Source: Phycisphaerales bacterium (GTDB lineage: Bacteria; Planctomycetota; Phycisphaerae; Phycisphaerales; UBA1924). From it: DNA of 34,643 nt. The notes under the pieces were generated by a model that saw nothing but the letters and a program-made list of their open reading frames with translations, was not told where the DNA came from and made no database searches. Numbering within the stretch: the stretch's first letter is position 1; each line of letters begins with the position of its first letter. Shown one piece after another: positions 1-27,723 of the stretch. The position numbers and the translations under genes were made by a program. Location of the stretch: the NCBI GenBank assembly GCA_020831775.1, contig JAFIFZ010000054.1, forward strand, positions 1 through 34,643, given 5' to 3'.

Positions 1-34
<34 letters not shown>

Positions 35-2333: not shown

Positions 2334-2350
2334 GCCCCCTTCCACCCCTC

Positions 2351-2597
2351 CTGTGGCACTGGCGGCTAGCCCGCCAGTGCTAAGCCCCTTCTACCCCTTC
2401 TCTCACCTTTCGCCTCTTCAACCCTCTCCCCCCTCTCCCGCGCAGCGGGCGCCCTCCCGTGCCACCGACCTCGCCCCGAGGTCGGTGCTCTCCCCCTACT
2501 CCTGCGCCACTGGCAACTCGCCCCTCGCCACTACCCCCTCTACTCCTCCGGCTCGCCTGCTCAACTCTCTCCTGCTCTCGCCCGCGCAGCGGGCGCA
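2351..2597. repeat. composite palindromic repeat (B, F, A, degenerate B, F)
   Basis: This fills most of the gap between genes at 2144-2623. Module B (2351-2382) has arms ACTGGCGG and CCGCCAGT around a short loop, preceded by CTGTGGC. A degenerate F unit follows at about 2383-2453. Module A (2459-2490) reads GTGCCACCGACCTC, a CGCCCC loop region, then GAGGTCGGTGCTC. A decayed B (about 2505-2530) and a good F unit (2545-2597) complete it. The rest of the gap holds nothing I can call. Confidence 0.8.
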
Positions 2598-2623
2598 CCC
2601 AAGGACAGTGAAGCGGAATCGCA

Positions 2624-6382: not shown

Positions 6383-7141
6383 ATCTGAGAACCCAATCTC
6401 AAATCGAGTCCCCACCCCCACCTCCGACGCCGCCCGGATCTCCCCACCCGCTGTTTCAACAAGCTTCTGGCAGATCGTGAGCCCCAAACCAACCCCCCCG
6501 CTCTCCTCCCGCCGCCGGAACGCCCGAAACGCCTCCGCCAGCTCCTCCGGTGCCATCCCCCGCCCCGTGTCCTCCACGATGATCCGGATGTTCCCCGTGG
6601 AACAATCCGTCCGGATGCTCAGCCGGCCGCCCCGCGGCCGCATCGCGTCCCGGGCGTTCAGGATCAGGTTGAGGAGCACCTGCTGGAGGGCCCCCTGGGC
6701 CATGGGGACCTTGAGGCCCGGGGCGACATCGCACAAGACCTCGACGCGGTCCTGGTGCAGCTCGCCGCCGAGGCAGTTCAGGGCGTCGTCGGTGGCCATC
6801 AGGACATCGGCGGCCTCGGCCGGGCTCCGGGGTTCGCCGGCCAGGCGGAGGATCGAGTCGGCGATCTCGGTGGCCCGGGTGGCGTTCTTGTCGGCGACCT
6901 CGACGGCCCGGGCCATGGCGGCGGGGTCGCCCCGCTTGGCCTTGGCGGCGCCGGTGGCCATCTTGATGGGGGTCAGGAGGTTGTTGAACTCGTGGGCGAG
7001 CATGGCCGCGGCGAGCCCGAGGGTGGCCAGGCGGTCGCTGCGGTGCAGGGCCGACTGGAGCTCTGAGAGCCGCTGATCGACCGACTCGATCTGGTCGAGC
7101 AGGGCGGCGGTGCTGGCGGCGATGTCTTCCCGGCTGGCCAT
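6365..7141 (-). CDS. soluble sensor histidine kinase
   Basis: 258 residues. After a coiled-coil-like N-terminus (1-35), the phosphoacceptor helix has LAHEFNNLLTPI with His50. The HATPase_c domain shows the N box LNLILNARDAM (157-167), G1 box DTGRGM (191-196) and G2 box GVGLGL (216-221). The enzyme should autophosphorylate on His50 and pass phosphate to a response regulator. There is no transmembrane segment or obvious sensor domain, so it is cytoplasmic. No response regulator gene is adjacent, so the partner is unknown. It lies 51 bp downstream of the Nudix gene on the same strand. The final residues DRHLGT come from the octamer repeat at the stop. Confidence 0.9.
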   Translation of the reverse strand: MASREDIAASTAALLDQIESVDQRLSELQSALHRSDRLATLGLAAAMLAHEFNNLLTPIKMATGAAKAKRGDPAAMARAVEVADKNATRATEIADSILRLAGEPRSPAEAADVLMATDDALNCLGGELHQDRVEVLCDVAPGLKVPMAQGALQQVLLNLILNARDAMRPRGGRLSIRTDCSTGNIRIIVEDTGRGMAPEELAEAFRAFRRREESGGVGLGLTICQKLVETAGGEIRAASEVGVGTRFEIGFSDRHLGT

Positions 7142-7192: not shown

Positions 7193-7651
7193 CTATTCGG
7201 TGGCTGAGATCCAGCGGTCGGCCTCGGGGCAGCCGGCGGCGAGCCAGGCCCGGGTGCAGCGGGGGAGGACCGGGAGGTCGATGACCGCGGCCAGGTCGAC
7301 CCAGGCGAAGGCGATGTCGGGCTCTTTGGACTCGATGGGGAGGGCCGGGTTTGGGCGCGCGCCGTCCAATTGTTCCACGAGGAACACCAGGTTGATCTCG
7401 TGTTTTGGCTTGTTGTTCTGGGTGAAGCGGACTTCGTGGGCGGCGAGGAAGGGGCCTATTTGTGCGCACAAACCGGCCTCCTCCATGAGTTCGCGGGCGA
7501 GGGCTTGCTCGGCGGATTCGTTGTGCTCGATGTGGCCGCCGGGGAGGTAGAGGTAGGGAGGGTCTGGTTGGTCGGGGGCGGCGGGGTGGCAGAGGAGGAC
7601 CTTGCCGTCGTGGATGGCGAGGCCGCGGGCGATGGGTTCGATTTTGGGCAT
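7193..7651 (-). CDS. Nudix hydrolase
   Basis: 152 residues starting at ATG 7651. The open frame continues far upstream opposite parB, but only this part has family features. The Nudix box is complete at residues about 39-61: GHIEHNE, seven residues, then RELMEEAGL, giving the Gx5Ex7REUxEExGU pattern that binds Mg2+ and cleaves nucleoside-diphosphate-linked substrates. The N-terminus IARGLAIHDGKVLLCH and the YLYLPGG turn are typical. The substrate cannot be deduced. It is transcribed away from parB, with a repeat (7658-7715) starting 7 bp before its start. It may be co-transcribed with the histidine kinase. Confidence 0.9.
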   Translation of the reverse strand: MPKIEPIARGLAIHDGKVLLCHPAAPDQPDPPYLYLPGGHIEHNESAEQALARELMEEAGLCAQIGPFLAAHEVRFTQNNKPKHEINLVFLVEQLDGARPNPALPIESKEPDIAFAWVDLAAVIDLPVLPRCTRAWLAAGCPEADRWISATE

Positions 7652-7657
7652 AGGGAA

Positions 7658-7715
7658 GCCCGCCTTTGGCGGGCGGAGGTTTGAGCAGGGGATCAGGTGA
7701 GCAGGTGACAGAGGG
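7658..7715. repeat. module F repeat between nudix gene and parB
   Basis: Palindrome GCCCGCCTTTGGCGGGC followed by GGAGGTTTGAGCAGG and two further G(A)GCAGG units, the reverse orientation of the F units at 116-176 and 2545-2597. It abuts the start of the Nudix gene and lies in the divergent promoter region of parB. Confidence 0.75.
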
Positions 7716-7789: not shown

Positions 7790-9043
7790 ATGGCTGAGAA
7801 GAAGACGGCGGGGAAGCAGAAGCCGCGGCGGTTGGGTCGGGGGTTGAGTGCGATGATTCAGGGGGCTCCGCCTGTTCGGGTGGAAGGGGATAGGTCCGAT
7901 AATAAACTGGAAGAGGCGGGTCAGAGTGGGGGGCGCCCGCCGGAGGCGAGCGGGAGCAGGGGAGGGTTGAGCAGGGGAGCAGGTGAGCGGGAGGTAGGCA
8001 GGGGTAGCACTGGCGGGCAAGCCGCCAGTGCCACAGGAGATGGGGGAGCCACAGGTCGGAGACCTGTGGCACCAGTCGGCGGAGATGGTGTAGACACGGC
8101 TCGGCGAGCCGTGCCGCCGGGAGGCGGAGAGGGTGTAGAGAGGACGGGGAACACTGGCGGGCAAGCCGCCAGTGGCACAGGGGGAGAAGGGGTAGCCACA
8201 GGCGAGACGCCTGTGCCACGAGAACGGGTAGGGAAGGGGAAGGTTGCTTATTTGGAGTTGCCTGTTGGGTCGGTGCGGGCGAATCCTTATCAGCCGCGGC
8301 GGGAGTTTTGGGAAGTGGAGATGCGCGAGTTGGTCGCGTCTGTGAAGCAGGACGGGGTGATCCAGCCTGTGGTGGTTCGGCCTGCGCCGGATGGGGAGGG
8401 GTATGAGCTTGTGGCGGGGGAGCGGCGGTTGCGTGCCGCGTTGTATGCGGGGCTGGAGACGATCCCGGCGATCGTGCGTGAGATCGGGGACCAGCGGTCT
8501 GCCGAGTGGGCGCTGATCGAGAATGTGCAGCGTGTGGATCTGAACCCGATGGATCGTGCGGCGGGTTTGCATTCGCTGATGATGAAGTTTGGGCTGACGC
8601 AGCAGGCCGTGGCGGACCGGATAGGGATGGAGCGGTCGAGCGTTGCGAATCTGCTGCGGCTGATGGAGCTTGAGCCGAAGATCCAGGAGCTTGTGCGTTG
8701 CGATTCGCTGAGTTTCGGGCACGCGAAGGTGTTGCTGTCGTTGCCGGCGGGGCGGTATCGGGTGGATCTTGCGCTTGCCGCGGCTGACAACGAGTGGCCT
8801 GTGCGGAAGCTGGCGTCGCGTGTGAAGTATGCGCTGAGCGACAAGAGCGGTGAGGGCGAGGCGCCGAAGGAGCGTTCGCCGGCGCTGGTGGACCTCGAGA
8901 AGCGGCTTGGGGAGCACCTGGGGACGCGTGTGCGGATCGAGACGGACAAGGGGGGTAAGCGGGGGAAGATTGTTGCGGAGTTCTTTGATTTGGATCACTT
9001 TGATGGGTTGGTGGGGAAGATGGGGTTTCGGTTGGAGGAGTAG
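7790..9043 (+). CDS. parB: chromosome-partitioning protein ParB with repeat-derived linker
   Basis: 417 residues from ATG 7790, with GGAGG 7 bases upstream. Residues 13-23 (RRLGRGLSAMI) form the ParA-contacting N-terminus. The CTPase/ParB domain starts near 153 with LPVGSVRANPYQPRREF and contains GERRLRAA (210-217) and ENVQR (244-248). A helix-turn-helix (LTQQAVADRIGMERSSVANL) follows at about 269-288, then a C-terminal dimerisation domain. ParB binds parS sites and, as a CTP-dependent clamp, helps segregate chromosomes. Residues about 45-144 are translated from a composite of intergenic-type palindromic repeats (7922-8222) yet keep the frame open, making the N-terminal linker unusually long. 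No parA is adjacent; the neighbours are a divergent Nudix gene and a KAP-like NTPase. Confidence 0.95.
   Translation: MAEKKTAGKQKPRRLGRGLSAMIQGAPPVRVEGDRSDNKLEEAGQSGGRPPEASGSRGGLSRGAGEREVGRGSTGGQAASATGDGGATGRRPVAPVGGDGVDTARRAVPPGGGEGVERTGNTGGQAASGTGGEGVATGETPVPRERVGKGKVAYLELPVGSVRANPYQPRREFWEVEMRELVASVKQDGVIQPVVVRPAPDGEGYELVAGERRLRAALYAGLETIPAIVREIGDQRSAEWALIENVQRVDLNPMDRAAGLHSLMMKFGLTQQAVADRIGMERSSVANLLRLMELEPKIQELVRCDSLSFGHAKVLLSLPAGRYRVDLALAAADNEWPVRKLASRVKYALSDKSGEGEAPKERSPALVDLEKRLGEHLGTRVRIETDKGGKRGKIVAEFFDLDHFDGLVGKMGFRLEE
7922..8222. repeat. composite palindromic repeat inside parB (F, B, C, D, B, E)
   Basis: Successive modules: F (7931-7995); B (8004-8037, CACTGGCGGGC...GCCGCCAGTG); C (8047-8074, CCACAGGTC...GACCTGTGG); D (8090-8118, ACACGGCTCG...CGAGCCGTG); B (8150-8181, opposite flank GTGGCAC); and an E-like unit (8192-8219, CACAGGCG...CGCCTGTG). 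All except C recur outside genes in this window. Together they encode about 100 Gly/Ala/Thr-rich residues without a stop. Confidence 0.9.
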
Positions 9044-9117: not shown

Positions 9118-11793
9118 ATGTTTAGGATCAGGTACATAGCGATTCGGTGGCTCACCGTTGTCGCGTACGCGGCAATCGCCGGATCAGTCGCCTTGCTCAT
9201 CGAGAGCGCATTGGCCAGTGCGGTGGAGTACACAGTTCGGGGCACCACGGGAAACCGATCTGTTGTGTTGATCGCGGCTTCTGGCACGACACTTGCCCTC
9301 GGGTTGCTCGGCGTCGCGATACCCCAGGTGCGCCTCCGTCTGTGGGGTCTCTTCGGCTTCAGGTACTTTTGGCAGTATCCGCCGCTGTGGGTAGCCGTCG
9401 CGGGTGCGGCGGCGTACATGGACTTCTTGCAGTTCAGTCTTTTTCGCACATCCGCCGGCGCGGGCGTTCCTTGGTTAGGAATAGTTGCAGTCTCGTGCGT
9501 TGCCGTCGTGGGTGCGCTTTCACCATTGTGGCGACTGCAAGAGATCTTGAAGGTGAAAGGCGGGGTCGACTCGGATTCAGCAGCGAGCGAGTCAATCAGG
9601 CTTTCTGATTTGCCAGTCGAGGCGTTGATTGAATGGGCGAAAGACGATAGAGAAGTTACGGATCGCAATCAAGACCTATTTGGGCACGCGGCCGTTGCGG
9701 CGCGCATTGCATCGCGGATCAAGGTAAATCCGGCCGATGTTCCGACCATGGTTGTCGTCGGAGAGCCTGGAACCGGGAAGTCCTCAATTCGCAATCTCCT
9801 GGAACAGGAGCTCGGCAAAGAGCCGAGCGTGGTGTTTGTCAATGTGAGTTTATGGCAGTATGCGTCCGTGAACGCTGCGGTTGCCGGGATACTTACATCG
9901 CTCGCAAAGGCGATTGCCGAGCGAGTGGACGCCACATCACTTTATCATTTGCCTGAGAAGTATGTTGAAGCGATCCAGGGGCTCAGCGGTTGGACGGGCA
10001 TGATTCGCCTGTTAGGTCGGCGACGCTCGCCGGAACAGATTCTCGAGCGGATAGCAAGCATCTTGCACGCGACGGGGATGACGGTGACACTTTACATCGA
10101 GGATCTTGAGCGATTCTCCGGAGCGCCCATCCAGATGGATCAGGAGCAACGCGGCGAGGCTAGTTTAGACGAGGCCGATCTCTGCGGTCCGATACACGCC
10201 GTCTTGCACTTGTTGGACCAACAGCAAAGAGTATCGGTGATCTTGGCGACCGCGTCTCTTCGCGACCGGCTGGATGTTGGCAAGCTGGCGCGGTACATCG
10301 AGACGCCTCCGGTGCCGACGGAAGAAGAGATATTGACACTGCTGCACTCGTTTCGACGACATTGCCTGACGAACTATGACTATATCGACCCTGCGCCCGT
10401 TCTATTCAGGTCGTATCTGGATCCGCCCTTTGGCATTGTGAGTTGGGATGAACTCCGATACCGAGAGCACAAAGTCATAAACCCGATGCTCGCACTTGGG
10501 CGATCGTTGCGAAATCCTCGTAGGTTCAAGCATTGCGTTCGCGAGGTGATCGACACATGGGACACGCTCTACGGAGAGGTTGACTTTGATGCGGTCTTGG
10601 TTGCGACCGCGCTGAAGTTGTCGTACCCCGCGGTCTTTAGCTTTCTTATGAACAACCGAGATGCGATTTATTTCCACCGAGGCCATAAGGGCGCTCGCGA
10701 CGCAGCGAAAGGTGGTCCGGGCGCGGACCCGGCTTTGAGTGTCCAGTTGAATGAAGTGGTTGAGCGGTCGGTGAGCCAGCGTGACCGTCGTGATGCTCGA
10801 CAACTGGTGTCTTATGCGTTTGCGATCGGAGGTGATCTTAGCAGAGGCATCTTAGATTCATCGCCGCAATCATTTCGGCAGTACACGCATTGCGACTATC
10901 TCAGGCGATTTCTCGCAAAGCAAGCCGTGCCCGAGCGGGAGAGTGACCAGCGAGTGTTAAGGGCAATCGAGCAATGGAACAAGTCGGCAAGCCCTGAGCT
11001 CGCAGAACTTCTTTTAGATGAAATGACCAATGAAAGCTTTGACACCTTTGCGTACCGGGTCAAACAAGGGGGTGAGCTCGCCCTATTCAAGGAAGTTGTT
11101 TCGAGACTGAGTGTGCATTCCGCTGCGCCATGGAAGTCTCATCGCGGAACCGTGCCGGGGTTGACACCTGCATGGCGGTTGGTCGAAAAATCGAACACCT
11201 TGAGCAGCGAGAAACACAGCGATGTCTGCGAGTTACTCGCGGTATGCATGCAGAACAATATCCCGTTGGCGTGCGAGTTATACCACAGATGCTATCGGAG
11301 TTCATATCGGCAATCGTTTAGCGGCACGCATCTGTTTGATAAAGGCCAGTTGGAAGAGCAGTATCAGATCATGATCAGTTGTCTTTTGGAGAACTATGTT
11401 GATAAGCCAGATCGAATGCTTGCGGCGCTCAAAGACGGGGAGTCTTGGACCGTGTTTCATTTGGTGTGGGGCGCACACCGATACACCGCGGGTGACTTGT
11501 GTGGGGTACCCTTTGATGGCTGGGAAAGCGTTGCTGACACCCTTACAAGAATGGTGGAGCGTGATCCGGTTAGCGGCCTGCGGTACATAGTGCCCTTCAT
11601 CACGCGCGAGGACTCGGAACGACGGATCGTTGAGTACGATGAGGACGCGGCGAAGCGTCTGTTTGATATGTCGCGGTTGCTGCCGTTGTTTGCGGCAACC
11701 CCTCCGCTTCAAAGCGGTAGCGCTGCATTGTTGGTTCGTTACGAGTTGGTCCAAAGCGTCGCTTCCAAGTTGAGAAAGTCGTCTTCCTCTTGA
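9118..11793 (+). CDS. membrane-anchored KAP-like P-loop NTPase
   Basis: 891 residues. Four hydrophobic segments (about 11-33, 48-70, 88-108, 116-136) precede the ATPase. The lead-in DLFGHAAVAARIASRI, Walker A GEPGTGKS (215-222) followed by SIRNLLEQEL, and Walker B VTLYIEDLERF (323-333) followed by VILATASLRDRL (374-385) fit the KAP group of P-loop NTPases, where an acidic pair sits in a hydrophobic strand. Typical KAP proteins carry membrane helices inserted within the NTPase; here they are N-terminal. The C-terminal 450 residues are unrecognised. KAP proteins are often linked to membranes and some to phage defence; that role is only an inference here. Codon use is less GC-rich than in flanking genes. 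No clear Shine-Dalgarno. Module G repeats begin within 15 bp of the stop. Confidence 0.72.
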   Translation: MFRIRYIAIRWLTVVAYAAIAGSVALLIESALASAVEYTVRGTTGNRSVVLIAASGTTLALGLLGVAIPQVRLRLWGLFGFRYFWQYPPLWVAVAGAAAYMDFLQFSLFRTSAGAGVPWLGIVAVSCVAVVGALSPLWRLQEILKVKGGVDSDSAASESIRLSDLPVEALIEWAKDDREVTDRNQDLFGHAAVAARIASRIKVNPADVPTMVVVGEPGTGKSSIRNLLEQELGKEPSVVFVNVSLWQYASVNAAVAGILTSLAKAIAERVDATSLYHLPEKYVEAIQGLSGWTGMIRLLGRRRSPEQILERIASILHATGMTVTLYIEDLERFSGAPIQMDQEQRGEASLDEADLCGPIHAVLHLLDQQQRVSVILATASLRDRLDVGKLARYIETPPVPTEEEILTLLHSFRRHCLTNYDYIDPAPVLFRSYLDPPFGIVSWDELRYREHKVINPMLALGRSLRNPRRFKHCVREVIDTWDTLYGEVDFDAVLVATALKLSYPAVFSFLMNNRDAIYFHRGHKGARDAAKGGPGADPALSVQLNEVVERSVSQRDRRDARQLVSYAFAIGGDLSRGILDSSPQSFRQYTHCDYLRRFLAKQAVPERESDQRVLRAIEQWNKSASPELAELLLDEMTNESFDTFAYRVKQGGELALFKEVVSRLSVHSAAPWKSHRGTVPGLTPAWRLVEKSNTLSSEKHSDVCELLAVCMQNNIPLACELYHRCYRSSYRQSFSGTHLFDKGQLEEQYQIMISCLLENYVDKPDRMLAALKDGESWTVFHLVWGAHRYTAGDLCGVPFDGWESVADTLTRMVERDPVSGLRYIVPFITREDSERRIVEYDEDAAKRLFDMSRLLPLFAATPPLQSGSAALLVRYELVQSVASKLRKSSSS

Positions 11794-11803
11794 GTTGGTT
11801 CCT

Positions 11804-12010
11804 CCGCTCCTTCGGAGCGGTGGGGATTGTTGGCGTTTTCCACGGGTTGCGCTTCGCTCGATGCTGCGCATCGTGCGTGCGCTGCACCCGTGGCAAGGAT
11901 CTGGGCGCTCCTTTGGAGCTTTCGAGGAGGGGGGCGGTGCGTTGTTGTGGGGGTGTTGCGGGGGTTGGTGGGTTGGTAGCACCGACCTCCTTTGGAGGTC
12001 GGTGGCACGG
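11804..12010. repeat. composite repeat (GCTCC hairpin, module G, module A)
   Basis: Within the 337-bp gap at 11794-12130: hairpin CCGCTCCTTCGGAGCGG (11804-11820); module G (11840-11901, 62 bp, outer arms CCACGGGT and ACCCGTGG with inner ATGCTGCGCAT); a second GCTCC hairpin-like sequence near 11907; and module A (11976-12010, ACCGACCTCC...GGAGGTCGGT followed by GGCACGG). Module G matches 22574-22635 with 6 differences and no gaps. Confidence 0.85.
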
Positions 12011-18099: not shown

Positions 18100-18494
18100 G
18101 GTCTCGGCCCGCTCTATCGGTCTGGAGTTATCGGTCTTTTCGGTGAATCATTCCCCTGATGCGGTGAGGGGGGTTGCGTCCGGCCGATCAGCGGGTACCT
18201 TACCACGGTGCCGTCCGGATCTTGTGCCGGTGAGTCCGCTGTGGGGTGGAACACCCCGGTGGGTCTGGCGTATTGGACGGTGAGGAGAGTGTGTGCGCCC
18301 ATCTGCCGCGGTTGAACGAAGGCGGCGTGGGTGGTTCATGAGGGTTTGGGGCGTGTGTTCGGGTGTTGGGTTGGGTGATGTGTTGGGGAGGGGCGGGTGT
18401 GTGATCCGGGCGTTGGGGATCTTGGGGCCTCGGATCTTGTGAGAGCGTTGGGTCAGTGCATCGCGGTGCAGAGATCGCGAGGAATGTGAAAACG
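18100..18494. other. 395-bp divergent intergenic region
   Basis: It lies between the AAA ATPase start (minus) and the metalloprotease start (plus), so it should contain promoters in both directions. I see no repeat module of the A-H set, no convincing -35/-10 pair and no gene. A short inverted pair GGGGTGGAACACCCC occurs near 18242-18256. Confidence 0.5.
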
Positions 18495-20351
18495 ATGAAG
18501 AAGTTCTCAACGAAGCGTGCGGTGCTCGCCTGCGCGGCGATCACGATGGCGGCGGGCTCAGCGTTCGGTGATCCAGCGATGGATCTGCTGATCGAGCGTG
18601 AGCTTCATGTGGACCGGTACGAGCTGGTCGATCTGGAGCTGCCAGGGGCGATCGGCAACGGGTTCACGGTGGGCCTGGATCTCGGCGGCGAGCTTGTGCA
18701 GGTGGAGATGCTGCCGTTTTCTGTGCGGTCTCCGTCGTTCCGCGTCCTGGTCGACGATGGGACGGAGATCCGCGAGGTGGATGCGCCCGAGTCCCGGACG
18801 CTGCGTGGTTTCGGCCTGACGCACCCGGATGTGGTTTCGGCCGCGTCGCTCTCTGATACCGGACTGACTGGGCTGTTCATCGTTCCGGGTCCGGGCGGCG
18901 AGGGCGGGACGACCTGGGTGGTGCAGCCGCTGCTTGATCTGACCGACGAGGCGCCGTTCGGTCGTCATGTGCTGTATCGCGCCGACGACACATTCGAGCT
19001 TCCTTACAAGTGCGGAGTGGACCACGAGAACCCTGAGGAGTTCATGCCGCACAGGCTGGCGCACCAGGACGCGGCTCAGCCGGAATCTCCCGAGCCTCAG
19101 CCCGAGACGCCGATGCCGCGGAGCGGGATGCTGCTTGCGGACATCGCGTACGACTTTGACTTCCAGGGTTACCAGTGGGCGGGATCGAGCGTGAGCGAGT
19201 CTGTCGCGCGGACCGAGGCGATCCAGAACGCGGTGACGCTGATCTACGAGCGTGACACGGACATCACCTACGACATCACCGAGATCATCGTGCGGACGAG
19301 CTCTGCTTCGAACCCGTACACGACGAACAACGCGGGCAATCTGCTGGTCCAGTTCCGCAACCACTGGAACGGCAACCACAACAGCGTGCCGCGGGATGTG
19401 GCGCACCTGCTGACTGGCCGGAACACGGGCGGTACGCTGGGTGTTGCGTATCTCGGCGTGATCTGCCAGCGGAACTCGGCGTACGGTCTGAGCCGGCTGA
19501 CCTGGACGAACAACTTTAACCTGCGGATCTCGGTTGTTGCGCACGAGCTTGGCCACAACTGGAACGCGCCGCACTGCAACGGCGCCTCGCCCTGCAACAT
19601 CATGTGCTCGGGCATCAACGGGTGCAACGGCGTGGGTCTGCCGAACTTCGCGCCCGTGAGCGTGAACACGATCACAAGCTTCCGCAACACACGGACCTGC
19701 CTGACGCCGACGGGGCCGGTGGCGCCGACCTCGCTGCCGATCACCGACACTTTCCCCGCGGGGAGCCTGAACCCGTCGGTGTGGGGCGACTTCGAGGGCG
19801 CGAGCATTGTCTTCCCGCTGGGCGCGACGCCTCCGGCGGGCTCGACGGTGATGCGTCTGACCTTGAACCAGTTCGCCGAGACGGTGCCTCTGGCGCTCGA
19901 GTCTGCCGGCACGGATGTGGTGGTCGAGTTTGCCTGGTCGAGCTTCTCGATGGAGGCGGGCAAGTCGCTGCGTGTCGATGTGTCTGACAGCAGCGGGAAC
20001 TTCACCGAGATCGGGGCGATCGTCGCCGACGGGAGCTTCCCCAGCGCGTACACCTACGAGTCGTTTGCGATCCCCGCCAACCTGCTGAACGACGGCGGGA
20101 CGGTGCGGTTCAGGGCGCAGGTCGCCGACACGAGCGATGTGTGGTATGTCGATGACCTGTACATCGGCGAGCCGGTGACGCCCGCGTGCCCGCCCGACCT
20201 CAACGGCGACGGCGTGGTTGACGCTGACGACTTCTTCCTGTTCCTGCAGCTCTTTGCGGCCGGTGATCCGGCGGCGGACTTCAACAACGACGGCGTGATC
20301 GACGCCGACGACTTCTTCGCGTTCCTGGGCGCGTTTGCCGCGGGTTGCTGA
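18495..20351 (+). CDS. secreted M12-like metalloprotease with GC-type dockerin tail
   Basis: 618 residues; ATG 18495, as an upstream frame from 18456 precedes the signal peptide MKKFSTKRAVLACAAITMAA. A propeptide-like region (26-210) contains a possible cysteine switch (YKCGVD). The metalloprotease domain (about 212-403) has HELGHNWNAPH (350-360), a zinc-binding HExxHxxxxxH motif in which the usual Gly is Asn, and a Met-turn CNIM (367-370), as in M12B/reprolysin-like enzymes. A beta-rich domain (about 415-560) follows. The C-terminus has two calcium-loop repeats, DLNGDGVVDADDFF and DFNNDGVIDADDFFAF, ending AAGC, the planctomycete GC-type dockerin thought to anchor or sort exported proteins. 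The next gene carries the same tail. Confidence 0.88.
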   Translation: MKKFSTKRAVLACAAITMAAGSAFGDPAMDLLIERELHVDRYELVDLELPGAIGNGFTVGLDLGGELVQVEMLPFSVRSPSFRVLVDDGTEIREVDAPESRTLRGFGLTHPDVVSAASLSDTGLTGLFIVPGPGGEGGTTWVVQPLLDLTDEAPFGRHVLYRADDTFELPYKCGVDHENPEEFMPHRLAHQDAAQPESPEPQPETPMPRSGMLLADIAYDFDFQGYQWAGSSVSESVARTEAIQNAVTLIYERDTDITYDITEIIVRTSSASNPYTTNNAGNLLVQFRNHWNGNHNSVPRDVAHLLTGRNTGGTLGVAYLGVICQRNSAYGLSRLTWTNNFNLRISVVAHELGHNWNAPHCNGASPCNIMCSGINGCNGVGLPNFAPVSVNTITSFRNTRTCLTPTGPVAPTSLPITDTFPAGSLNPSVWGDFEGASIVFPLGATPPAGSTVMRLTLNQFAETVPLALESAGTDVVVEFAWSSFSMEAGKSLRVDVSDSSGNFTEIGAIVADGSFPSAYTYESFAIPANLLNDGGTVRFRAQVADTSDVWYVDDLYIGEPVTPACPPDLNGDGVVDADDFFLFLQLFAAGDPAADFNNDGVIDADDFFAFLGAFAAGC

Positions 20352-20380
20352 GGCAGGCCCGGGCTTTGAGTTGGCGAACC

Positions 20381-20410
20381 CGTCGCGGGGGTGGAAACGC
20401 CCCCGCGACG
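20381..20410 (+). other. perfect stem-loop before the second protease gene
   Basis: An 11-bp perfect stem, CGTCGCGGGGG with CCCCCGCGACG, around an 8-base loop TGGAAACG. It is followed by CTTTGATAAGGAG, where AAGGAG is the Shine-Dalgarno of the protease at 20431. No U-run follows, so a classical terminator is unlikely. It could be an RNA-processing or stability element separating expression of the two protease genes. Confidence 0.75.
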
Positions 20411-20430
20411 CTTTGATAAGGAGACACCCG

Positions 20431-22350
20431 ATGCGGCGCGGTCATTGCGGGCTGGTGCTTTTGATGGCGTGCGGGCTGGCGTGCGGGGGTGCGCATGCCG
20501 CCGATGGCGTTGCGCCGGCGCCGATCGATGTCGCGACGGGTGTGGGCGACGGGGTGGAGCGGCTGTTCATCGAGACGCCCGATGCGTTGGCTTCGATGGC
20601 GACGCGGGAGGACGGGCTCGACGGGTTTTTGCTCTATGCGCGGGTGATCGCAAAGGCCGAGGCCGGTGTGCTGCGTGCGGTGCTCGGCGCGGGCGCGGCG
20701 ATGGAGCCTGTTGCCGGCTCGCCGGGGTACTGGCTCGTTGAGGCGGCGAGCGTGGCGGACGCGGTGTCGCTGGCGTTTGCGCTGCAGGCGACGCCGGGCG
20801 TGGGCGAGGCGTTTGTTGACATCGAGCGGCCGACGGCGCTGCGGAGCGTCCCGAACGACCCGCTGTTTCCGAGTCAATGGCACCTGCGGAACACGCAGGT
20901 GGTCGGGGCGGACGCGAACATCGTGGGCGCGTGGGGCTTGGGGTACACGGGGCAGGGCGTGACCGTCGGCGTGATCGACGGCGGGGTCATGCAGACGGGG
21001 CATCCGGACCTTGCGGCGAACTTTGTCCCGGCCGCGTCGATCACTTCGGGGACTTATGTCGGCGGGCACGCGACGAATGTCGCGGGTGTTGTGGGGGCGG
21101 TTGGGGATAACGGGATCGGCGTGACGGGCGCGGCTTACAACGCGGGGCTCGGCGTGATGTCGTTCGGCAGCGCGTCGCAGAACGCCACGGCGTTCAGCCA
21201 CCGCAACGACCTGATCTCGATCAAGAACAACTCGTGGGGCCCGCCCGACAACGGGCGCCTGGGCTTCTGGACGAATGTCGAGGCGAACGCGATCCGCAAC
21301 GCGGTGAACAACGGGCGAGGCGGGCTCGGCGTCGTGTTCGTGTGGGCGGGGGGCAACGGGGGGACGGTCGACCGCGTGGATTACGACAACTACGCGTCGA
21401 GCCGGTACACGATCGCGGTGGGGGCGATCAACGACCTTGATCGGCGTGCGTCGTATTCGGAGCGGGGCTCGTCGCTGCTGGTCGGGTCGCACTCTCACGA
21501 CACGGGGCGTCGGCACATCTGGACGACGGATCGAACTGGCAATTACACCAATAACTTCGGCGGGACGAGTTCGTCGGCCCCGCTGGCGGCGGGTGTTGTG
21601 GCGCTGATGCTGGAGGCGAACCCGCAGCTTGGCTGGCGCGATGTGCAGCATGTGCTTGTTGAGTCGGCGCGGAAGGTGCACCCGGCCTCGCCCCAGTGGC
21701 AGGTCAACGGGGCGGGGTACGACATCAACTACGACTTCGGGTTCGGCGCTGTCGACGCGACGGCGGCGGTGACGCTGGCCGAGCAGTGGACGCTTGTGGG
21801 CGAGGAGATCTCGGCGACGACGGGGGCCGTGCAGGTGGGCGTGACGCTGCCCGACAACGACCCGGCCGGGCACAGCGTGACGGTGGCGATGGGCGATCGC
21901 GTGCGGATCGAGCATGTCGAGCTGGTGCTGAACGCGACGACGGCGCATGTGGGCGACCTGCGTGTGCGGATCACCTCGCCGGATGGGACCGAGTCGCTGC
22001 TGGCTGTGCCGCGGAGCGATTCGACAAGCAACTACAGCAACTTCGTGTTCACGAGCGTGCGCCACTGGGGCGAGCTGTCCGAGGGCGACTGGACGGTGCA
22101 CATCGCCGACGAGCGGCCGAGCAACATCGCGACCTGGAACAGCTTCGAGCTGCGGGTGTACGGGACGGACCCGGCGGAGGCGTGCCGCGCTGATATCAAC
22201 GGCGACGGCGTGCTGGACGCGGACGACTTCTTCGCGTTCTTGAGTCTGTTTGCGGCGGGTGATGCCGCGGCGGACTTCAACGGGGACGGGGTGATCGACG
22301 CGGATGATTTCTTCGCGTTCTTGACGGCGTTTGCGGCGGGGTGTCCGTAA
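20431..22350 (+). CDS. secreted kexin-like subtilase with P domain and GC-type dockerin
   Basis: 639 residues; ATG 20431 with AAGGAG 7 bases upstream. Signal peptide 1-23 (LLMACGLACGGAHAA). Peptidase S8 domain: Asp183 in VGVIDGG, His213 in GGHATNVAG, oxyanion Asn309 in WAGGNGG and Ser380 in GGTSSSAPLAAGV, the last strongly kexin-like. The His motif is unusual, HATNVAG where HGTxVAG is expected. A P domain (about 465-580; VELVLNATTAHVGDLRVRI, GDWTVHIAD) follows, as in proprotein convertases. Two calcium loops, DINGDGVLDADDF and DFNGDGVIDADDF, end in AAGCP. Probably a cell-surface or secreted protease, cotranscribed with or just after the metalloprotease 79 bp upstream. Confidence 0.92.
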   Translation: MRRGHCGLVLLMACGLACGGAHAADGVAPAPIDVATGVGDGVERLFIETPDALASMATREDGLDGFLLYARVIAKAEAGVLRAVLGAGAAMEPVAGSPGYWLVEAASVADAVSLAFALQATPGVGEAFVDIERPTALRSVPNDPLFPSQWHLRNTQVVGADANIVGAWGLGYTGQGVTVGVIDGGVMQTGHPDLAANFVPAASITSGTYVGGHATNVAGVVGAVGDNGIGVTGAAYNAGLGVMSFGSASQNATAFSHRNDLISIKNNSWGPPDNGRLGFWTNVEANAIRNAVNNGRGGLGVVFVWAGGNGGTVDRVDYDNYASSRYTIAVGAINDLDRRASYSERGSSLLVGSHSHDTGRRHIWTTDRTGNYTNNFGGTSSSAPLAAGVVALMLEANPQLGWRDVQHVLVESARKVHPASPQWQVNGAGYDINYDFGFGAVDATAAVTLAEQWTLVGEEISATTGAVQVGVTLPDNDPAGHSVTVAMGDRVRIEHVELVLNATTAHVGDLRVRITSPDGTESLLAVPRSDSTSNYSNFVFTSVRHWGELSEGDWTVHIADERPSNIATWNSFELRVYGTDPAEACRADINGDGVLDADDFFAFLSLFAAGDAAADFNGDGVIDADDFFAFLTAFAAGCP

Positions 22351-22760: not shown

Positions 22761-24284
22761 TCAAGAGAACAGCACGAAGTACATCGCGAGCAGGACGAGG
22801 CTGTTGTGGATGAAGTGGGCGGTCATCGAGGCGATGATCGAGTTGCGCCATTCGCGGAGCAGGGCGAAGGTGACGGCGAGGGCTGTCAGGACGGGCACTG
22901 CTGTCGGGCCGTAGGCGTGCACGAGCGTGAAGACGAGTCCGACGACGATCGCGGAGAAGACGACTCTGAAGCGTGCGCGGAGGTGGCGGTACATGCCGCC
23001 GCGGAAGACGAGCTCTTCGACGACCGGGGCCCAGAGCGTCGCGAGGGAGAAGAGCAGGAGCAGTTCGAGGAAGCCCGCCTGGGCGATCCGGTCGGCGATG
23101 GGGTTGTGGACATTGGGCGGCTCGCCGACGACGGCGTTCCACAGGTTCATGATGACGAGCGAGAGGAGCATGCCGGCGAGCAGGAGGGGGATGCCGGCGA
23201 GGTAGCCGAAGACGCCGCAGAGGACCTCGCGCGTGACGCCGCGGGGTGCGATGAGTCCGAGGTCGTGTCGGACGCGGGCCCAGGGGACGCCTCGGTAGAC
23301 GGGCCAGAGGACGACCAGGAGCAGCGACCACTGCAAGACGGCGGCGCCGATCACGGGCACCTGCACGCCGATCGCGGTGATGATGTAGACCACCAGCCCG
23401 ACCGCCATGAACCCCGCGAGGAAGAGCGGCAGCATTTCGAGGTAGACGCTCCCGCCCGGCGCGGGCGGCACAAACCTCGGCGCGAGCTTGCCCTTGGCGA
23501 ACAGGTACAGGGCGATGAGGAAGCAGAGCAGGCCCAGGCCAGCGAGGCCGACCATCGCGGCGCCGGCTGAGAGCAGGCGTGTCGCGAAGCTCCGCGCGTC
23601 TTTGAGGAGTTCGGCGCGGGCCGCGGCGTCGTCGGGCTCGCCGATCACCATCGCCAGCGAGGCGAACCAGGCGTGGCGTTCGTTGAGGCGTTCGAGGTCG
23701 TCGGGGTGCACGCGGGTGACGCCCTCGCCCCAGATCAGGTCGACGGTCTCGATGTCGGCCAGGAGATCGGACTGGGCGTCGTCTTCGGGGTCGAGGGAGC
23801 GGCGGAGGCGGGCGAGGTCCTGATCGGCCGCGGAGATGCCCTCGAGCTCGGCCTTGAGGATCAGCAGGCGGAGCTGGTCCTGCTCCGGGGCGTCCTGGTC
23901 GATCTCGGGGATGAGCATGGCGTCGGCGAAGCCGGGCTCCAGGCCCCAGCGGCTGAAGAGCTCGCGCAGGCCGATCGTGGCCCGGGCGCCGGTGACCAGG
24001 GCGTCGCCCGGGCCGGGGGCTGTGAACTCGGCGGCTTCGGCGGGCTCGGGCGAGCCGAAGATCGCCTCGTAGTTCTGCATCCACGCGACCAGCAGAAAGA
24101 GGACCAGCGCGAGCCAGAAGGTGATCCGGCGGCTGCGGGGCGTGCCCGGGTCTGGCCTGCGGGCGGGGGCCCCCGGTTGGGGGTCGGCCCGGGCTGGCCG
24201 GGGTGGGTGGGCGGGGGGGTGGTGGGGGTGGGGGGTGGGGGGGGGGGGGGGGGGGGGGGGGGCGCGGGTGGGGTGGTGGTCCAT
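22761..24284 (-). CDS. CPBP-family intramembrane metalloprotease with polyproline N-terminus
   Basis: 507 residues from ATG 24284; an in-frame GTG at 24308 is possible. Residues 8-50 are almost all Pro, His, Arg and Ala, partly encoded by a 26-base C run. One membrane segment (about 53-70) and a soluble region of about 180 residues precede some seven membrane helices. The C-terminal CPBP (Abi/CaaX-like) motifs are present: EELVFRGG with Glu423-Glu424 and Arg428, TLVH with His456, and HFIHN with His490 and Asn494. Such proteases cleave within membranes; substrates are unknown here. It is convergent with the subtilase gene, separated by the repeat array. Confidence 0.88.
   Translation of the reverse strand: MDHHPTRAPPPPPPPPTPHPHHPPAHPPRPARADPQPGAPARRPDPGTPRSRRITFWLALVLFLLVAWMQNYEAIFGSPEPAEAAEFTAPGPGDALVTGARATIGLRELFSRWGLEPGFADAMLIPEIDQDAPEQDQLRLLILKAELEGISAADQDLARLRRSLDPEDDAQSDLLADIETVDLIWGEGVTRVHPDDLERLNERHAWFASLAMVIGEPDDAAARAELLKDARSFATRLLSAGAAMVGLAGLGLLCFLIALYLFAKGKLAPRFVPPAPGGSVYLEMLPLFLAGFMAVGLVVYIITAIGVQVPVIGAAVLQWSLLLVVLWPVYRGVPWARVRHDLGLIAPRGVTREVLCGVFGYLAGIPLLLAGMLLSLVIMNLWNAVVGEPPNVHNPIADRIAQAGFLELLLLFSLATLWAPVVEELVFRGGMYRHLRARFRVVFSAIVVGLVFTLVHAYGPTAVPVLTALAVTFALLREWRNSIIASMTAHFIHNSLVLLAMYFVLFS
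24237..24262. repeat. 26-base poly-G tract within CPBP gene
   Basis: Twenty-six consecutive G on the plus strand (C on the coding strand), encoding the prolines just after the start of the CPBP protease. One-base changes would shift the reading frame of the whole protein. It may be a slippage-prone phase-variable tract or a sequencing artefact. Confidence 0.9.
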
Positions 24285-24358: not shown

Positions 24359-24449
24359 GACCGTGGCACAGGCGTCCCCGCCTGTGCGGAAGCGCAGTCG
24401 TTGATCGCCGGCAGGATGTTCGCCCGGGCGGGACGCCCGGGCCACGGTC
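24359..24449. repeat. 91-bp inverted-repeat element E, copy 1
   Basis: Terminal inverted repeats GACCGTGGC (24359-24367) and GCCACGGTC (24441-24449) enclose two inner palindromes, CACAGGCG...CGCCTGTG and GCCCGGGCGGGACGCCCGGGC. Same length and nearly the same sequence as 26455-26545 and 27558-27648. The structure resembles a miniature inverted-repeat element. No clear target-site duplication. Confidence 0.88.
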
Positions 24450-26400: not shown

Positions 26401-26619
26401 ACCCGACTCTTCGCTGTACTCAGAGGTCGGCGTCAGGGGGTGTTCGGCTCGGTCGACCGTGGCACAGGCGTCCCCGCCTGTGCGGAAGCGCTGTCGTTGA
26501 TCGCCGGCGGGATGTTCGCCCGGGCGGGACGCCCGGGCCACGGTCTATTGCGGCTCGGGCTTGCGTGTTGGGGGTCGGTTGACGGTTGGACCCGACTCTT
26601 CGCTTCGCTCAGAGATCGG
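26401..26619. repeat. H-E-H repeat block upstream of paralogue 1
   Basis: Module H (26401-26430, CCCGACTCTTCGCT...CAGAGGTCGG), element E copy 2 (26455-26545, 91 bp with GACCGTGGC/GCCACGGTC ends), and a second H (26590-26619). The same arrangement occurs at 27503-27723 upstream of paralogue 2, so the block was carried in the tandem duplication. Confidence 0.88.
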
Positions 26620-27502: not shown

Positions 27503-27723
27503 ACCCGACTCTTCGCTGTACTCAGAGGTCGGCGTCTTGGGGGCGTTCGGCTCGGTCGACCGTGGCACAGGCGTCCCCGCCTGTGCGGAAGCGCTGTCAT
27601 TGATCGCCGGCGGGATGTTCGCCCGGGCGGGACGCCCGGGCCACGGTCTGTTGCGGCTCGGCCTTGCGTGTTGGGGGGTCGGTGGTTGGTTCGACCCGAC
27701 TCTTCGCTTCGCTCAGAGGTCGG
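27503..27723. repeat. H-E-H repeat block upstream of paralogue 2
   Basis: Module H (27503-27532), element E copy 3 (27558-27648, 91 bp), module H (27694-27723). It matches 26401-26619 almost base for base, including TCGGCTCGGTC before E and TTGCGGCTCG after it. Confidence 0.88.

What the first reader, a model, noticed from the sequence alone, without database searches (positions are those of the whole stretch)
7922..8222. Composite of intergenic palindromes incorporated in frame into parB
About 300 bp in the linker between the ParA-contacting motif (RRLGRGLSAMI) and the ParB CTPase domain consist of six palindromic modules (F, B, C, D, B, E). Five of the six are otherwise seen only between genes here. 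The frame stays open and the conserved domains on both sides are intact, so the insertion appears tolerated and makes a roughly 100-residue Gly/Ala/Thr-rich linker. It suggests that a repeat family can lengthen a disordered linker in an essential protein. Hairpin-rich mRNA here could also affect translation.
Basis: partly seen in the sequence, partly recalled or inferred. Interest (0 to 1): 0.85.

Follow-up and report, generated by a model that had tools for sequence, protein, structure and literature searches.

The report
Palindromic DNA repeats inside parB
A cluster of small repeated DNA palindromes that normally sit between genes has become part of the one chromosome-partitioning gene parB found in this bacterium, adding about 100 probably floppy residues without breaking the frame; in-gene palindromes of this sort are known, so it is a striking example rather than a new kind of thing.

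Summary
Window 7922-8222 lies in frame inside parB (7790-9043), between the RRLGRGLSAMI motif and the ParB_N domain. It holds five REP-type hairpins (B, C, D, B, E), a weaker palindrome F and a G-rich leader. The same hairpin types are scattered over this genome (157 pattern matches, 13 for reversed controls) and two same-genus genomes. Similar F-leader-REP composites lie in spacers here. The ParB domains are intact and the insert is predicted disordered.

The wider pattern is firmer than the single case. In a 718-kb sample of this genome, 9 of 107 REPs sit in checked genes: five in parB and one each in queC, nuoL, an oxidoreductase and a glycosyltransferase. A same-genus species lacks exactly 36 nt (12 codons) at the oxidoreductase REP. 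The glycosyltransferase loop holds REP D, REP C or none in three species of the genus. Another genus has a different REP in frame elsewhere in its parB.

In-frame REPs are already published (GTAG REPs; Rickettsia RPEs), so this is a large, composite new member of a known kind. The mobilising enzyme is unproven, no empty parB site was seen within the genus, and no benefit to ParB is shown.

The parts
7790..9043 (+). parB, ATG start with a GGAGG-like site just upstream, 417 residues
   Evidence: Pfam domains; only parB match in this genome at E<=0.001
7826..7858 (+). N-terminal RRLGRGLSAMI motif, upstream of the insert and in the same frame (its contact with ParA is recalled)
   Evidence: L15, G16, G18 and L19 invariant in 49 aligned ParB
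7922..8222 (+). composite REP tract read in frame (about residues 45-145); predicted disordered
   Evidence: residues 37-134 mostly pLDDT below 50
7930..7957 (+). module F: imperfect palindrome GCGCCCGCC-GGA-GGCGAGCGGG
   Evidence: aligned copies at C11:7756 on and in the reverse strand of window 2347-2600
7958..8003 (+). G-rich leader GGGTTGAGCAGGGGAGCAGGTGAGC..., shared with spacer composites
   Evidence: partial copy just upstream of parB at 7675-7705
8004..8034 (+). REP type B with GTAG tag and CCAC tail
8045..8073 (+). REP type C (GGAG in place of the tag)
8090..8117 (+). REP type D with GTAG tag
8148..8178 (+). REP type B, second copy, 144 nt after the first, no GTAG
8192..8219 (+). REP type E with GTAG tag and CCAC tail
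8255..8530 (+). ParB_N domain (CTPase by recall), intact
   Evidence: matched to solved ParB sequences
8537..8827 (+). HTH_ParB domain, intact
8876..9022 (+). ParB_C dimerisation domain, intact
7655..7708 (+). spacer copy of an F-like palindrome and leader just upstream of parB
   Evidence: repeat D3 (7675-7705); palindrome read from the sequence
2347..2600 (-). spacer composite (F, leader, REP A, REP B) that aligns with most of the parB tract at about 65%
6589..6604 (+). parS-like site, 1 mismatch to a consensus recalled from memory
   Evidence: 2 matches in window, 0.02 expected
7371..7386 (+). parS-like site, 1 mismatch, upstream of parB

Best explanation
REP palindromes of a set of families shared by the genus spread mainly in spacers, and now and then land inside genes. 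The hairpins are G+C-rich and short of stop codons, so an insertion whose total length is a multiple of three can be read through. One spacer-type composite (F, leader, REP) entered the disordered linker of parB, between the N-terminal motif and the ParB_N domain. It then grew to five REPs by further insertions and/or an internal duplication. Selection kept only versions with the frame open. The roughly 100 extra residues are most likely a passive, tolerated lengthening of a linker that varies freely in length. Shown: the repeats, their spread, the intact domains, and presence or absence between relatives at other genes. Inferred: the order of events in parB, and tolerance. Not shown: which transposase did it, and any benefit.
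For: Repeat nature: two patterns give 94+63 matches here against 9+4 for reversed controls; G001 66+36 against 6+5; G002 50+28 against 6+2 (one hairpin can be counted on both strands). Composite design is shared with spacers. The tract looks non-coding: the gene finder started parB only at 8258, while the conserved motif upstream shows the gene is longer. In 50 other parB genes no such tract is seen at hairpin score 9 or more; linkers vary, median 58.5 in 46 measured. Direct evidence at other genes: exactly 36 nt with REP E missing in the oxidoreductase of G001, same genus; the REP-coded segment of queC is missing in all seven relatives of other genera aligned, one of which (G014) has a partly filled loop of other sequence; the glycosyltransferase loop holds REP D, REP C or none in three species of the genus. 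A second, independent REP lies in frame in the parB of G032, in the loop before GERR, where G060 and G051 have other insertions. The core is predicted well folded and the insert disordered.
Against: The two same-genus genomes gave no parB match at all, so no empty site for parB itself could be read. An open frame through 300 nt of REP DNA is not rare (27% of frames). The five REPs share one reading phase and one orientation, which fits stepwise duplication as well as separate insertions. The only Y1 transposase found is not a REP-type one by NCBIfam's cut-off, and most A and B hairpins lack the GTAG tag. At nuoL the same-genus comparison gives no clean gap. In G032 the pattern total is hardly higher than its control (20 against 18); the case for a REP there rests on 11 of those 20 matches being long palindromes of one design.
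Confidence: 0.86

Rival explanations
1. The tract is an untranslated leader: ParB is made from a start downstream of it, and the upstream frame is only open by chance.
For: The tract has spacer-like composition; open frames through REP clusters are common; the published survey warns that many N-terminal in-gene REPs may be extragenic (PMC3733652, section 15).
Against: The N-terminal RRLGRGLSAMI motif lies upstream in the same frame with an ATG and a ribosome-binding-like site; its core residues are invariant in 49 aligned ParB. Other in-gene REPs lie inside coding sequence with conserved parts on both sides.
Confidence: 0.06
2. The insert has been put to use: the longer linker, or the RNA hairpins, tune ParB spreading, ParA contact or translation.
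For: The only parB found in the genome, very stable RNA fold, all five REPs in one phase and orientation, a second genus with a REP in parB.
Against: Different site and different REP in G032; linker length varies widely without REPs, including 143 residues in L007; in-gene REPs hit unrelated genes and use different phases.
Confidence: 0.05
3. Misassembly or a chimeric contig joined spacer REPs into parB.
For: Repeats are hard to assemble; the genome is in 84 contigs; the G001 queC contig begins exactly after the place of the REP-bearing segment.
Against: The frame and all domains are preserved on both sides with no stop; the same kind of insertion is seen in four other genes, one with a clean empty site, and in another genus.
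Confidence: 0.03

Closest known systems
In-gene GTAG-tagged REPs (Di Nocera, De Gregorio, Rocco 2013, PMC3733652; abstract, sections 5, 15 and 16 and passages read)
   Same: Short GTAG-tagged palindromes, several families in one genome, mostly in spacers, some inside genes; clusters in genes are reported to encode 43-82 residues; the highest number of in-gene GTAG repeats was in O. terrae (Verrucomicrobia)
   Different: Here one gene holds five REPs of four types plus F and leader, about 100 residues, all head-to-tail (absent or rare in most genomes there); many A and B hairpins lack the tag; the words parB and partition do not occur in its main text (its supplement was not read)
Rickettsia palindromic elements, RPE (Ogata and colleagues; known here through passages of PMC10969869 and PMC3733652, the original is not held)
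   Same: Palindromic repeats read in frame inside unrelated genes
   Different: RPEs are described there as about 150 bp with a conserved peptide; here 19-28-bp hairpins are read in different phases, so no peptide is conserved
REPtrons / TnpA-REP (RAYT) systems (PMC8266576, passages read)
   Same: GTAG next to a hairpin; a Y1 transposase gene in this genome is flanked on both sides by GTAG palindromes
   Different: By NCBIfam the enzyme is IS200/IS605, not REP-associated; its flanking palindrome has another stem than A-E
Enterobacterial repeat units fused to genes (PMC2759123, passages read)
   Same: Small mobile repeats read in frame in proteins
   Different: 103-168-bp MITE-like units, not hairpin clusters

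Membership tests
GTAG REP families | short palindrome present in many copies | tested here: met
   107 distinct copies in 718 kb
GTAG REP families | GTAG tag beside the hairpin | tested here: inconclusive
   within 8 nt upstream in 14 of 27 C/D/E, 6 of 41 B, 1 of 39 A; background 0.8%. In the parB tract 3 of 5; in the four other genes 0 of 4
GTAG REP families | mostly between genes | tested here: met
   9 of 107 in checked genes, about 83 expected at the coding fraction 0.772; 27 further rows in upstream frame extensions (33 rows less six of parB) were not checked one by one
REPtron / RAYT | transposase of the REP-associated family | tested here: not met
   NF047646 24.9 bits against cut-off 80; NF033573 (IS200/IS605) 83.2 against 55
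REPtron / RAYT | transposase gene flanked by GTAG palindromes | tested here: met
   gene at L001 1405-1857; palindromes at L001 907-957, 1306-1356 and reversed at 1072-1131 on one side, reversed at 2040-2080 on the other
Rickettsia RPE | unit of about 150 bp with a conserved encoded peptide | tested here: not met
   hairpins of 19-28 bp read in phases 0 and 2 and on both strands
chromosomal ParB | ParB_N, HTH and C-terminal domains, N-terminal LGRGL motif | tested here: met
chromosomal ParB | parS sites near the gene | tested here: met
   two one-mismatch sites at 6589 and 7371, 0.02 expected (consensus recalled)
chromosomal ParB | ParB protein made at full length | not testable with these tools
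   needs protein data

The most novel reading that the evidence does not exclude
Disordered loops of core genes act as lasting docking sites for REPs in this lineage: once a loop can take one in frame, REPs are inserted, swapped for other types and piled up there, so that a selfish repeat steadily remodels linkers of essential proteins. The parB tract is the furthest-grown case, the glycosyltransferase loop (type D, type C, none in three species of the genus) shows the turnover, and the short types C, D, E are the ones that do it (4 of 24 in genes against 0 of 78 for A and B outside parB, a comparison made after seeing the data).
Probability: 0.25. Interest if true: 0.65.

Novelty: new member of a known kind. 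Interest (0 to 1): 0.45.

Why it matters
It shows, by comparing species of one genus, that small spacer repeats can enter and change inside conserved genes without breaking them, and that they have piled up in the one parB found here. It gives a ready set of test cases (parB, queC, nuoL, an oxidoreductase, a glycosyltransferase) for asking whether such linkers are neutral, and it warns that a gene finder may trim starts at REP-rich stretches, as mine did.

Tried and rejected
Chance palindromes: rejected by genome counts and reversed-pattern controls. An RPE-like conserved peptide: rejected, phases differ. Open frame as strong proof of selection: weakened by REP clusters outside genes. A first gene finder called an antisense frame over parB; the second still drops the insert, the parB N-terminus and the gene at 9118-11793. 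Rows dropped before the counts: all eight of type '?' (three of them inside called genes, some of the others probably variant REPs) and one weak hairpin inside a gene at C81:73584; of eight rows inside called genes four were kept. The search with the parB neighbourhood in the same-genus genomes listed almost only repeats, probably because only 40 candidates a genome were scored, and its list was cut. Genome-contig search gave one distant named relative, a Phycisphaerales MAG, 41% identical in the best segment, the only basis here for the class. Linkers: the first count had at least three wrong values through a loose motif; one search used a stricter one, gave no value for four of 50 relatives (L008, L013, L016, L154), and its lowest value (19, L011) is still an artefact (one search gives 40). 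The parB of five of the 54 relatives with a match (G005, G042, G047, G050, G059) was not read. The hairpin scan would miss hairpins weaker than score 9, as it does D and E of the window. NuoL: the closest same-genus copy (96%) differs at the REP but gives no clean gap; one of ten nuoL loci (L102) was not picked up by my motif. Oxidoreductase: four of eight genomes searched had no match, and for the two other-genus loci my script picked the wrong frame, so only G001 was usable. Link between REP number and Y1 transposase across 41 family genomes: no simple link seen (for example G003 has 108 pattern matches and no PF01797 match), not tested further. An earlier count said eight relatives for queC; the right number is seven of other genera.

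Full report
What is there. The window is contig C25 of an unnamed 3.55-Mb genome in 84 contigs. The only named relative found is a Phycisphaerales MAG whose ParB is 41% identical in its best segment. parB runs 7790-9043 with ParB_N, HTH_ParB and ParB_C domains. It is the only parB match in the genome at E<=0.001, and two parS-like sites lie upstream (consensus recalled). Between the N-terminal RRLGRGLSAMI motif and ParB_N lies the tract 7922-8222: an imperfect palindrome F, a G-rich leader, and hairpins B, C, D, B, E. Hairpin starts are 42, 45, 57 and 45 nt apart, all multiples of three, and all five point the same way. As two of three forward phases of a tagged hairpin are open, one shared phase has a chance of about 1 in 16, which is weak evidence of duplication or selection.

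Repeat family. The strict tagged pattern has 17 matches in the genome and none for its reverse. Two wider patterns have 157 matches here against 13 reversed, 102 against 11 in G001 and 78 against 8 in G002, both of the same genus (a hairpin can count on both strands). Types are A (CACCGACCTC), B (CACTGGCGG), C (CACAGGTC), D (CACGGCTC) and E (CACAGGCG or CACGGGCG). Among neighbours less than 150 nt apart in the sample, 20 of 34 pairs outside parB are inverted and 14 are head-to-tail; in parB 4 of 4 are head-to-tail. The GTAG tag is frequent in C, D, E (14 of 27) and rare in B (6 of 41) and A (1 of 39), against 0.8% of random 8-mers. Spacer composites with the order F, leader, REP, REP align with the parB tract at C11:7756-7935 and on the reverse strand of window 2347-2600. 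The second half of the tract resembles the first (8119-8222 against 7975-8075, 74%).

REPs in genes. In the 718-kb sample (31 joined stretches) the home-made gene finder marks 77% as coding. Of 107 distinct A-E hairpins, 9 are in checked genes: 5 in parB, and one each in queC (C), nuoL (D), an FAD-dependent oxidoreductase (E, reversed) and a glycosyltransferase (D). About 83 would be expected without avoidance. queC is confirmed by NCBIfam above cut-off. The other three are supported as real genes by matches in relatives, but their names are my reading of the sequence, not a family-model result.

Presence and absence. The oxidoreductase of G001 (same genus) lacks exactly 36 nt that hold REP E, with near-identical DNA on both sides. 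In queC all seven other-genus relatives aligned lack the REP-coded segment (in G014 the loop is partly filled by other sequence); the G001 contig begins just after its place and the G002 fragment does not reach it. In the glycosyltransferase loop G000 has D, G002 has C, G001 has neither. In nuoL the loop is histidine-rich and variable; the closest same-genus copy has no REP there but no clean gap either.

parB in relatives. 51 parB genes were read over their length for hairpins of score 9 or more: the window's, one named (L033), and 49 of the 54 unnamed relatives with a match. The tract is seen only here. G032, another genus, has a 28-nt hairpin followed by a GCAC tail, in frame in the ParB_N loop before GERR. 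In G032 the wide pattern has 20 matches against 18 for its control, so the total proves nothing; but 11 of the 20, this one included, are 30-32-nt palindromes of one design (my reading of the list), so I take it as that genome's REP. Hairpins in L004, L013, L028 and L030 are not of REP type; that of L013 is parS-like. So 2 of 51 parB carry REPs, at different sites and of different types. That does not show enrichment.

Structure. With 49 aligned ParB the model has pLDDT above 90 over most of the core (from about residue 151) and mostly below 50 over residues 37-134. The tract thus encodes predicted disorder. As RNA it is very stable (z -5.2); its effect on translation is untested.

Mobiliser. 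One Y1 transposase gene is found. GTAG palindromes of another stem flank it on both sides. A related, untagged element lies at window 11838-11895 (78% over about 85 nt to a flank copy) and matches many other places in the three genomes. NCBIfam files the enzyme as IS200/IS605 and not as REP-associated. It is a candidate only.

Comparison with print. In-gene GTAG REPs, including clusters encoding 43-82 residues, and RPEs are published. In the main text of PMC3733652 neither 'parB' nor 'partition' occurs; its supplement was not read. A search for palindromic + ParB + in-frame insertion + linker found no paper in the held library. A search for two of Phycisphaer, palindromic and REP elements found 46 papers; of the eight listed none mentions Phycisphaerae. 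These searches cover the open-licence library only.

Verdict. Observation confirmed; interpretation supported in its main point; kind already known; new member, notable for size, mixed make-up, the gene it sits in, and the same-genus evidence for turnover at other genes. On re-checking, the queC count fell from eight to seven and the G032 control was added; neither changes the odds.

Noticed in passing
G000:C83:71243-71587 (L001): Single Y1 transposase, IS200/IS605 by NCBIfam, flanked on both sides by GTAG palindromes CCACGGGT...ACCCGTGG; a related untagged element recurs at window 11838-11895 and many other places.
   Followed up: partly
L127 (G000:C12), L128 (G001), L129 (G002): One loop of a glycosyltransferase holds REP D, no REP, and REP C in three species of one genus.
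   Followed up: yes
L140 (G032:C59:2792-2823): Independent in-frame REP-like hairpin in another genus's parB, in the ParB_N loop before GERR.
   Followed up: yes
window 24366-24442, 26462-26538, 27565-27641: Three near-identical copies of a paired-palindrome element between neighbouring genes.
   Followed up: no
window 1-32 and 24200-24273: A run of 32 C at the contig start and a 74-nt G-rich run; possible assembly or sequencing artefacts.
   Followed up: no
window 6589-6604 and 7371-7386: Two parS-like sites inside neighbouring genes upstream of parB; exact matches to the same pattern occur in 32 of 159 loci, 31 of them parB loci.
   Followed up: partly
window 9118-11793: A KAP/AAA-type NTPase gene right after parB that the second gene finder leaves out, so perhaps of unusual composition.
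   Followed up: no
window 18456-20351 and 20335-22350: A metallopeptidase and a subtilase in tandem, both with EF-hand-like C-termini.
   Followed up: no
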